Positions 29,655 to 30,887 of a DNA stretch of 64,000 nt are shown piece by piece; position 1 is the stretch's first letter, and every line of letters starts with the position of its first letter. The stretch spans positions 62,001-126,000 of the forward strand of contig JARGNR010000002.1 of the NCBI GenBank assembly GCA_029212405.1, written 5' to 3'. A program made the position numbers and the translations under genes. The stretch is from Saprospiraceae bacterium. Its GTDB lineage: Bacteria > Bacteroidota > Bacteroidia > Chitinophagales > Saprospiraceae. Below the pieces are notes generated by a model that was not told the origin of the DNA, did not search any database, and saw nothing but the letters and a program-made list of their open reading frames with translations.

Positions 29655-29703
29655 GTGGGTGATAGGGTATAAAAAGAAGGGAGTTTATGAGGCAATAAAA
29701 TAG

Positions 29704-29737
29704 AAATAGAGCATCGAATGTATCCGACACTCTATTT
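29704..29737 (-). terminator. Hairpin at the 3' end of the tRNA-like array
   Basis: An 8-bp stem AAATAGAG / CTCTATTT with an 18-nt loop lies 20 bp past the 3' end of the last tRNA-like unit on the minus strand, followed by CTATTTTATT. It may end the array transcript, although the loop is large and the T tract is broken. Confidence 0.4.
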
Positions 29738-29757
29738 TCAAACTGTAATTTCTTTTG

Positions 29758-29921
29758 CTGTGAGAGAAGGATTCGAACCTCCACGAAGCGCTTAGCCACT
29801 AAGCAGATATCTTTATGATTTAAGGGAAAAACGTATGTGGTCAACCCATTACCTAGCGTTTATTGCGTGATCTTCACCCCCGAGACAGGAGGGCATGTCT
29901 GCCAATTTCATCACCTCACAG
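29758..29921 (-). ncRNA. tRNA-like RNA, A-type unit 1
   Basis: Read on the minus strand, the 164-nt unit folds as a class II tRNA. The acceptor stem is CTGTGAGG / TCTCACAG, the D-arm is ATG-AAATTGGCAGA-CAT as in tRNA-Leu, the anticodon arm is CCCTC-CTGTCTC-GGGGG, and the T-arm is GGAGG-TTCGAAT-CCTTC with an ideal TTCGAAT loop. Between anticodon arm and T-arm lie 94 nt instead of the usual 13-20. This part can form a GAAG/CTTC plus CGC/GCG stem and an internal GCTTAG-TGG-CTAAGC hairpin. By canonical counting the anticodon would read GUC (Asp), which does not fit a leucine-type body, and position 37 is U. No CCA is encoded. It may be a functional odd tRNA, a tRNA mimic or a decayed tRNA; three identities (acceptor, D-loop, T-loop) make chance unlikely. 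Confidence 0.6.
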
Positions 29922-30073
29922 TGTATATAGTATTTCAAAAAACAATGGAAATCAGGAAACCCTCAGCCACGCACCCGCTTTCGCGGTTTCCTCATTTGAA
30001 GTACTGTTGTACTTCACTTCTCTAAACGAGAAGGTCATTCGGTCACATGTCTGCCAATTTCATCACCTCACAG
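29922..30073 (-). ncRNA. tRNA-like RNA, B-type unit 1
   Basis: The 152-nt unit starts with the same CTGTGAGGTGATGAAATTGG block as the A units. After it come a hairpin CTTCTC-GTTTA-GAGAAG where an anticodon arm would be, a perfect TGAAGTAC-AACA-GTACTTCA hairpin like a variable arm, a CCGC-GAAA-GCGG tetraloop hairpin in the T-arm position, and an enclosing AGGAAACC / GGTTTCCT pairing. It has no partner for its 5' acceptor strand. It directly precedes an A unit on the minus strand. Confidence 0.5.
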
Positions 30074-30222
30074 TGTATATAGTATATTAAAAAACAAGTT
30101 TGGGATGAAAGACTTAGATCCAGCCCGCTTTCGCGGTTCCTTCACTTGAAGCACTGTCGTACTTCACTATAATTTCTTAACGAAATAATAGATCGCTCAG
30201 TCAAAATTTCATCACCTCACAG
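30074..30222 (-). ncRNA. tRNA-like RNA, C-type unit (diverged B)
   Basis: The 149-nt unit is a diverged relative of the B units. It shares the 23-bp start block (30205-30227 on the plus strand), the GAAGTAC-GACA-GTGCTTC hairpin and the CCGC-GAAA-GCGG tetraloop hairpin. Its anticodon-position stem has a different sequence (ATTTC-GTTAA-GAAAT, extendable to nine pairs with one mismatch) but the same place and form, i.e. paired changes relative to B. The D-arm is degenerate. Confidence 0.45.
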
Positions 30223-30237
30223 TGTATTTTATATTCG

Positions 30238-30257
30238 TTAGATAACATTTTATCTAA
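30238..30257. other. AT-rich perfect hairpin in the array spacer
   Basis: TTAGATAA and TTATCTAA form an 8-bp stem with a CATT loop in the 66-bp spacer between the A2 and C units. It could be a terminator, a processing site or a protein site. Confidence 0.5.
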
Positions 30258-30288
30258 TGGTAGCTGCCTTTATTACTAAAAACGATAG

Positions 30289-30452
30289 CTGTGAGAGAAG
30301 GATTCGAACCTCCACGAAGCGCTTAGCCACTAAGCAGATATCTTTATGATTTAAGGGAAAAACGTATGTGGTCAACCCATTACCTAGCGTTTATTGCGTG
30401 ATCTTCACCCCCGAGACAGGAGGGCATGTCTGCCAATTTCATCACCTCACAG
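30289..30452 (-). ncRNA. tRNA-like RNA, A-type unit 2
   Basis: This 164-nt unit is identical to the A-type unit at 29758-29921, with the same cloverleaf, the same 94-nt variable region and the same GUC anticodon reading. On the minus strand its 3' end is followed by CTATCGTTTTTAG and a spacer with a perfect hairpin. Confidence 0.6.
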
Positions 30453-30604
30453 TGTATATAGTATTTCAAAAAACAATGGAAATCAGGAAACCCTCAGCCA
30501 CGCACCCGCTTTCGCGGTTTCCTCATTTGAAGTACTGTTGTACTTCACTTCTCTAAACGAGAAGGTCATTCGGTCACATGTCTGCCAATTTCATCACCTC
30601 ACAG
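30453..30604 (-). ncRNA. tRNA-like RNA, B-type unit 2
   Basis: This 152-nt unit is identical to the B-type unit at 29922-30073. It is the first unit of the array in the minus-strand reading direction; upstream of it the sequence becomes a plain AT-rich spacer, so an array promoter should lie at about 30610-30700, although no TAnnTTTG box with a good -33 partner was found there. Confidence 0.5.
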
Positions 30605-30609
30605 TGTAT

Positions 30610-30887
30610 GTAGTATTTCAATTTTTTAAACACCGCTTTCTGTGTTTGATAAAACAAATATAGAAGCGTTTTTAATAATAAACAAATAAAATTCAGCTAT
30701 TTTCAATATAACTGTATAAGTATTCAGTTATTTGTCATTAAAATATTAAAATGTTCAATAGTTGGTTGTTTTTTGATTACATATTGGAATAATATTCATT
30801 AAATATGACTTAGAGGTGAATCTGGTTTAGATTATTGTTGAATTTTGTGTAAAATGTTCATAAATAGTAAAAGATACAAGACATTTA
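30610..30887. other. AT-rich spacer without visible genes
   Basis: The stretch between the tRNA-like array and the comM-like gene is strongly AT-rich. I see no reading frame, terminator or promoter pair that I can defend. Confidence 0.6.

What the first reader, a model, noticed from the sequence alone, without database searches (positions are those of the whole stretch)
29758..30604. Array of tRNA-like structured RNAs with an unprecedented layout (best candidate for an undescribed system)
Seen directly: on the minus strand five units in the order B-A-spacer-C-B-A start with the same tRNA-Leu-like acceptor/D-arm block. A units close into full cloverleaves with ideal D- and T-arms but a 94-nt variable region; B and C units keep D-arm, anticodon-position, variable-arm and T-arm-position hairpins but lack a 3' acceptor strand. 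Known biology: class II tRNAs have 13-20-nt variable regions. Inference: this may be a family of tRNA mimics or decoys, a regulatory array that competes for one 3' acceptor strand, or a tRNA-based mobile or repetitive element. No protein gene fits the region.
Basis: partly seen in the sequence, partly recalled or inferred. Interest (0 to 1): 0.85.

Follow-up and report, generated by a model that had tools for sequence, protein, structure and literature searches.

The report
tRNA-like RNAs with giant arm
This stretch encodes copies of an uncatalogued RNA that looks like a transfer RNA with an oversized, conserved extra arm; the same RNA gene recurs across many Bacteroidota bacteria and their large phages, which suggests a real but unknown job outside ordinary protein synthesis.

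Summary
The A units (29757-29920 and 30288-30451, minus strand) are real. They belong to a widespread structured RNA family that matches no Rfam 15 family, including RF00005. The RNA has a complete 7-bp acceptor stem, D, anticodon-like and T arms, G73-C74, and a 4-bp variable stem opening into a conserved internal loop and a variable tip (unit length 109-211 nt). Covariation is overwhelming: 97.7% of cells paired, 111 double-change cells against 31 in shuffles. Members occur in about 170 of 299 genomes of the order, in seven families of the phylum sample, and once each in 18 of 18 phage contigs checked, often inside tRNA arrays. Arrays carry Bacteroidota promoters and intrinsic terminators, and the window's does too. 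Invariant positions (U1-A72, G2-C71, G73, U35, C36, C38; anticodon GUC in 173/177) include the five strong aspartate determinants, but position 37 is U, position 33 drifts, and an ordinary tRNA-Asp exists. I read it as an autonomous, probably aspartylatable, non-decoding tRNA mimic; charging is inferred, not tested. B and C units keep only the 5' part and look lineage-specific. A recent exact 322-bp duplication made B-A twice.

The parts
30655..30686 (-). Bacteroidota-type promoter: TTTG (30686-30683), 20-nt spacer, TATATTTG (30662-30655)
   Evidence: TAnnTTTG is enriched upstream of homologous arrays, 73/139 against 6.4 in shuffles
30475..30603 (-). B unit 1: leader-proximal 5' tRNA-like block (acceptor 5' strand and D arm) followed by hairpins; no anticodon-type arm, no T arm, no 3' acceptor strand. 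The 3' limit is approximate
   Evidence: second half not found with the tRNA-like block in other genomes
30288..30451 (-). A unit 1: complete tRNA-like RNA with giant variable arm
   Evidence: R1 138.3 bits; covariation
30408..30424 (-). A1 anticodon-like arm CCCTC-CTGTCTC-GGGGG (5 bp, 7-nt loop, GUC at 34-36)
30314..30407 (-). A1 94-nt variable region: GAAG/CTTC stem, 4-nt bulge, CGC/GCG, internal loop AATAAA/CTAA, P2, apical motif GGGTTGACCAC
30297..30313 (-). A1 T arm GGAGG-TTCGAAT-CCTTC
30085..30221 (-). C unit: diverged B-like unit. The 3' limit is approximate
29944..30072 (-). B unit 2: exact copy of B unit 1
   Evidence: 322-bp exact duplication
29757..29920 (-). A unit 2: exact copy of A unit 1
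29696..29738 (-). Intrinsic terminator: AATAGAG...CTCTATT hairpin and T-rich tail
   Evidence: terminators follow 81/147 homologous arrays against 0-2 in shuffles

Best explanation
SHOWN: The A units are genes for a conserved, stand-alone structured RNA. Arrays of it typically have their own promoter and terminator signals. It keeps the sequence features a tRNA needs for maturation and elbow folding: a 7-bp acceptor, U8, an 11-nt D loop with GG, T loop TTCGA, and G73-C74 with the CCA not encoded (as in several of this genome's own tRNAs). It adds a large structured variable arm. The array in the window grew by a recent 322-bp tandem duplication. INFERRED: The transcript is cut by RNase P and the 3' tRNA machinery and completed by the CCA-adding enzyme. 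Its acceptor end and anticodon loop are held fixed because a synthetase, most likely AspRS, recognises them. It does not serve routine decoding: position 37 is a pyrimidine, U33 is lost in some families, and an ordinary tRNA-Asp is present. The giant arm is the functional addition, a docking platform for an unknown partner, so the RNA acts in trans as an aspartyl-RNA donor or as a tRNA-shaped regulator. B and C are by-products of array rearrangement, truncated after the D arm.
For: Family and structure: 97.7% of cells paired, 111 double-change cells against 30.6 shuffled, 0/500 shuffles, and slid controls collapse to 44-58% paired (on an alignment made without structure). Clean score gap: members score about 85-158 bits, ordinary class II tRNAs at most 64. 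Distribution: 40/395 phylum genomes in seven families; about 170/299 in the order (my tally from the table); the 80 listed pattern hits in species genomes all carry Bacteroidota-type titles. Phages: 23 viral contigs, many inside tRNA arrays, exactly one copy in each of 18 contigs searched whole. Transcription: TAnnTTTG 73/139 against 6.4, TTG-N17-23-TAnnTTTG 31 against 0.6, terminators 81/147 against 0-2, boxA-like GYTCTT 30/139 against 1.75. Identity pattern: U1-A72 176/177; G2-C71, U35, C36, C38 and G73 177/177; G34 173/177; the inner acceptor pairs covary freely. AspRS determinants G73, G34, U35, C36, C38 are from PMC9976931.
Against: No expression, processing or charging data. G1-C72 is described as strictly conserved in bacterial tRNA-Asp, but the family has U1-A72; position 10 is usually A or T rather than G. 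Four units have anticodon CUC, UUC or AUC. Two of the sample sets (A2, A3) were found with a pattern containing the anticodon loop, so loop conservation is unbiased only in the A4 and A5 sets (63 parsed units), which show the same picture; seven units of those two sets could not be parsed automatically, and those of them I can read keep U35-C36. No partner protein identified: neighbours are not conserved. The role of the arm is unexplained, and its apical module is absent from many short units.
Confidence: 0.5

Rival explanations
1. It is a decoding tRNA-Asp, merely with a very long variable arm, used to supplement Asp codons in hosts and phages.
For: GUC in 173/177, canonical D and T loops; placed among tRNAs in phage arrays.
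Against: U37 in 175/177 while ordinary tRNA-Asp loops in the same loci are almost all CTGTCAC or TTGTCAC (9 of 10); A33 in seven units; an ordinary tRNA-Asp is present in this genome and in one phage locus that also carries the RNA (L229); no tRNA model recognises it.
Confidence: 0.15
2. It is a decoy or bait for enzymes that attack or modify tRNAs (anticodon nucleases, toxins, tRNA-guanine transglycosylase): the tRNA-Asp-like loop is presented on a stable scaffold to absorb or sense them.
For: Conserved anticodon loop without decoding features; one copy per phage contig, often next to tRNAs; phage T6 escapes a defence that cleaves tRNA-Tyr by amplifying anti-defence loci (PMC13096335 abstract).
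Against: Invariant acceptor end U1-A72/G2-C71/G73 is not explained by an anticodon-loop bait; no conserved neighbour gene, and so no linked defence or toxin gene, at the loci examined.
Confidence: 0.2
3. Decayed tRNA duplicates (pseudogenes).
For: B and C units lack the 3' half and are lineage-specific; the array shows recent duplication.
Against: For A units: phylum-wide conservation with compensatory changes, promoters and terminators, phage carriage. It remains the best reading of B and C.
Confidence: 0.03
4. An interrupted tRNA: the extra region is an intron removed from a normal tRNA.
For: Insert lies between anticodon and T arms; its size varies widely.
Against: The insert starts with a stem at the usual class II variable-arm position and has a conserved internal loop; no group I or II intron matches in Rfam searches; the D arm is the 3-bp class II type; ARAGORN's intron mode gives inconsistent anticodons or nothing.
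Confidence: 0.04
5. A Ro60/Y-RNA (YrlA-like) system: a tRNA-like module of a Y RNA.
For: Bacterial Y RNAs are tRNA mimics (my knowledge).
Against: No TROVE protein in this genome and only 3 of 61 relatives have one; no YrlA match in Rfam.
Confidence: 0.01

Closest known systems
Class II tRNAs (tRNA-Leu, -Ser, -Tyr) and tRNA-Sec/allo-tRNAs
   Same: Acceptor and T arms of 7 and 5 bp (class II), 3-bp D stem, variable arm as a stem at the same place, tRNA elbow sequences; some allo-tRNAs carry GUC anticodons (PMC7609411)
   Different: Much longer variable region with a conserved internal loop; Asp-like loop with pyrimidine 37; not recognised by the Rfam tRNA model or ARAGORN; 7/5 rather than the 8/4 or 9/3 arms of allo-tRNAs
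tRNA-Asp (GUC)
   Same: G34, U35, C36, C38, G73, G2-C71
   Different: U1-A72 instead of G1-C72, U37 instead of A37, class II body with giant arm; ordinary tRNA-Asp coexists
Pseudo-tRNA of Bacillus cereus (tRNA-Other)
   Same: tRNA-shaped RNA that the authors say does not function in translation, with a physiological phenotype on deletion (PMC3399842 abstract)
   Different: Reported for one strain's pathogenicity island; no giant arm described in the abstract read
tmRNA and bacterial Y RNA (YrlA)
   Same: Stable tRNA-like RNAs; two phage copies lie in the same cluster as a tmRNA gene
   Different: No coding tag or permutation; complete D arm and anticodon-type arm; no TROVE partner

Membership tests
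tRNA (Rfam RF00005) | Reaches the curated score of the family model | tested here: not met
   No tRNA match at gathering score in the window, none up to E 10 at the array, while 41 tRNA matches elsewhere in the same genome are found
tRNA | Acceptor, D, anticodon and T arms with elbow sequences (U8, GG in D loop, TTC in T loop) | tested here: met
tRNA | Decoding features: U33 and purine 37 | tested here: not met
   37 is U in 175/177; 33 is A, G or C in 10/177
tRNA-Asp identity | G73, G34, U35, C36, C38 | tested here: met
   G73, U35, C36 and C38 in 177/177, G34 in 173/177; determinants from PMC9976931
tRNA-Asp identity | G1-C72 and G2-C71 pairs | tested here: not met
   G2-C71 invariant but pair 1-72 is U-A
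tRNA-Asp identity | Aspartylation by AspRS | not testable with these tools
   Needs a charging assay
   94 nt in the window; unit lengths 109-211 nt
YrlA / Y RNA | Ro60 (TROVE) protein in the genome | tested here: not met
   0 in own genome, 3 of 61 relatives
Group I/II intron in tRNA | Match to intron covariance models | tested here: not met
   No such match
tmRNA | tmRNA called by ARAGORN at the array | tested here: not met
   Zero genes in the window
Allo-tRNA | 8/4 or 9/3 acceptor/T-arm composition | tested here: not met
   7 and 5 bp

The most novel reading that the evidence does not exclude
A phylum-wide, chargeable but non-decoding RNA: a tRNA-Asp mimic whose giant arm recruits a dedicated partner, so that aspartyl-RNA (or the uncharged mimic) serves a process other than translation, in Bacteroidota and in the large phages that carry one copy each.
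Probability: 0.3. Interest if true: 0.93.

Novelty: new variant of a known kind. Interest (0 to 1): 0.78.

Why it matters
A structured RNA conserved across much of a bacterial phylum and kept as a single copy by large phages is likely to matter to both, yet no Rfam family matched it. It separates the tRNA features needed for maturation and perhaps charging from those needed for decoding, so it offers a direct handle on non-translational uses of tRNA-shaped RNAs and on what phages gain from tRNA-like genes. Named cultured hosts (Chitinophaga pinensis, Algoriphagus, Echinicola, Cyclobacterium, Marivirga) make it testable.

Tried and rejected
ARAGORN on the window, and on fetched loci with and without introns: nothing, or inconsistent intron calls. 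Rfam at gathering and relaxed thresholds: no match to a tRNA, tmRNA, Y RNA or intron family; only weak chance hits. Conserved neighbouring protein: none among the relatives' loci. TROVE/Ro60 partner: absent. Dimerisation through palindromic loops after GACCAC: not enriched over shuffles, 22/82 against 15-24. A longer helix around GGUNGACCA: the first pair never varies (so it says nothing), only the second pair exceeds shuffles, and the third to fifth do not. Anticodon-GAC kissing inside the RNA: only 3 bp, no covariation to test, absent from short units. Second half of B/C as a dispersed repeat in this genome: only 3 copies, all in the array. Isolated-phage records and plasmids: no match to the window unit; one 636-kb uncultured phage record matches a viral unit. 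Literature searches found no description of this RNA; subscription journals and preprints are mostly not covered.

Full report
OBSERVATION. On the minus strand of 29757-30604 the block TGTGAGGTGATGAAATTGGCAGACAT or a close form occurs five times, starting at 30603, 30451, 30221, 30072 and 29920. Two units (A) close into a cloverleaf with a 7-bp acceptor stem TGTGAGG/TCTCACA, a 3-bp D stem, a 5-bp/7-nt anticodon-like arm CCCTC-CTGTCTC-GGGGG, a T arm GGAGG-TTCGAAT-CCTTC and G73-C74, with 94 nt between the anticodon stem and the T stem. ARAGORN and Rfam report no tRNA there, although 41 tRNA matches are found elsewhere in the same genome, including a normal tRNA-Asp. B-A is present twice because of an exact 322-bp duplication, 30609-30288 = 30078-29757.

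HOMOLOGUES. A DNA search with the array found matches in 29 of 61 genomes (this one and relatives), mostly to the A unit. Extracted units share the acceptor, D arm, anticodon-like arm and T arm almost without gaps, and differ mainly in the tip of the variable region. An alignment made from sequence alone, with the structure I named, gives 97.7% paired cells, 21 of 35 pairs with changes on both sides and 111 double-change cells against 30.6 expected; no shuffle out of 500 reaches these values, and sliding the partner by 1-3 columns drops pairing to 44-58%. All seven helices carry double changes.

ANATOMY OF THE ARM. After the anticodon stem comes one nucleotide, a 4-bp stem of type GRRG/CYYC, a 3-5-nt bulge usually starting with A, a 3-bp stem, an internal loop of type RAYAAA opposite CUAA, and a second stem (P2) that varies freely but mostly keeps pairing. 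The pair above the internal loop is C-G, G-C, U-A or U-G by inspection. Many long units, including those in the window, carry the apical motif GGGUNGACCAC (82 of 185 distinct units in the U-or-A form; a C or G form is seen in others). Units range from 109 to 211 nt.

DISTRIBUTION. A covariance model (R1) separates the family from ordinary class II tRNAs: members score about 85 bits or more, ordinary tRNAs at most 64. Only a small number of candidates per genome were scored, so counts are lower bounds. About 170 of 299 genomes of the order qualify (my tally from the table at E below 1e-15). In the phylum sample 40 of 395 qualify, concentrated in seven families (6/6, 11/13, 7/10, 8/8, 2/3, 3/3 and 3/3 by my tally), one of them outside the class. 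A pattern scan of species genomes gave 118 stretches before its limit; the 80 listed carry Bacteroidota-type titles such as Chitinophaga, Algoriphagus, Echinicola, Cyclobacterium, Segetibacter and Saprospiraceae. Virus contigs: 23 carry it, scoring 94-137 bits, many inside tRNA arrays and two in the same cluster as a tmRNA gene. Eighteen of those contigs searched whole have exactly one copy each.

TRANSCRIPTION SIGNALS. Upstream of homologous arrays the Bacteroidota promoter element TAnnTTTG occurs in 73 of 139 cases against 6.4 in shuffles, with a TTG at the right spacing in 31 against 0.6. A boxA-like GYTCTT lies mostly 11-13 nt before the RNA (30 of 139 against 1.75). Intrinsic terminators follow 81 of 147 arrays against 0-2 in shuffles. 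The window array has TTTG-N20-TATATTTG (30686-30655) and a terminator hairpin (29738-29696). These were simple mononucleotide shuffles and a consensus scan, so they show enrichment, not function.

IDENTITY AND MECHANISM. In 177 parsed distinct units, G2-C71, G73, C74, U35, C36 and C38 are invariant, U1-A72 holds in 176 and the anticodon is GUC in 173; position 37 is U in 175, and position 33 is A, G or C in ten. The 63 parsed units found without using the anticodon loop as a search key show the same. The inner acceptor pairs covary while the outermost two pairs do not change in that sample, so the acceptor end and the anticodon loop are the fixed points, as expected for synthetase recognition. 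The literature gives G73, G34, U35, C36 and C38 as the five strong aspartate determinants, but also G1-C72 as strictly conserved in bacterial tRNA-Asp (PMC9976931), which this family lacks. Ordinary tRNA-Asp loops in the same loci are CTGTCAC or TTGTCAC in 9 of 10 cases. My reading is a matured, probably aspartylated, non-decoding tRNA mimic whose arm docks an unknown partner. Maturation is inferred from conserved ends, charging from identity elements, and non-decoding from U37, drifting U33 and the co-existing tRNA-Asp. None of these three steps has been measured.

B AND C UNITS. Their second half occurs only three times in this genome, all within the array, and weakly in few relatives. A congener has another 5'-only unit with a different continuation just before its complete unit (L010). 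They are best read as truncated or rearranged copies. A lineage-specific function cannot be excluded: B and C keep a hairpin with changed stem letters, but this is one comparison.

REJECTED. Intron, Y RNA/Ro60, tmRNA, mobile element, and competition for a shared 3' acceptor strand: see rivals and Tried and rejected. Novelty rests on Rfam 15 and an open-access literature search, so an unpublished or paywalled description is possible.

Noticed in passing
Viral loci L225, L228, L229, L237, L238, L240, L268-L387 (for example L225:7682-7830 minus): A second class of tRNA-like units in phage contigs: nearly constant ends AGTCAGGTGGCGGAATTGGTAGACGC ... TACAGGTTCGAATCCTGTCCTGACTAC around very different inserts; 180 units (169 distinct, 70 to about 270 nt) in 114 loci, with few recognised as tRNAs (38 tRNA name strings in the ARAGORN output). 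It looks like tRNA-capped variable RNAs.
   Followed up: partly
L057 (G000:C57:22500-23220): A degenerate tRNA array in the host genome; its tRNA-Asp has the loop CTGTCTC with U37, the same loop as the A units.
   Followed up: no
L241:841-1227 and L243:7105-7491: Two virus contigs encode a tmRNA (tag GEEKSSFTFEDALAFVGADYAVAA) in the same cluster as this RNA and several tRNAs.
   Followed up: no
L067 (G033:C17:80500-82500), near 1247 and 1314: Tandem 67-bp-spaced copies of a palindromic element (TGAAATACGACAGTATTTCA plus GAACCGCGAAAGCGG) resembling the second half of the B/C units.
   Followed up: partly
Upstream of homologous arrays, mainly Chitinophagaceae loci: A boxA-like GYTCTT element mostly 11-13 nt before the RNA, suggesting rRNA-type antitermination.
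   Followed up: partly
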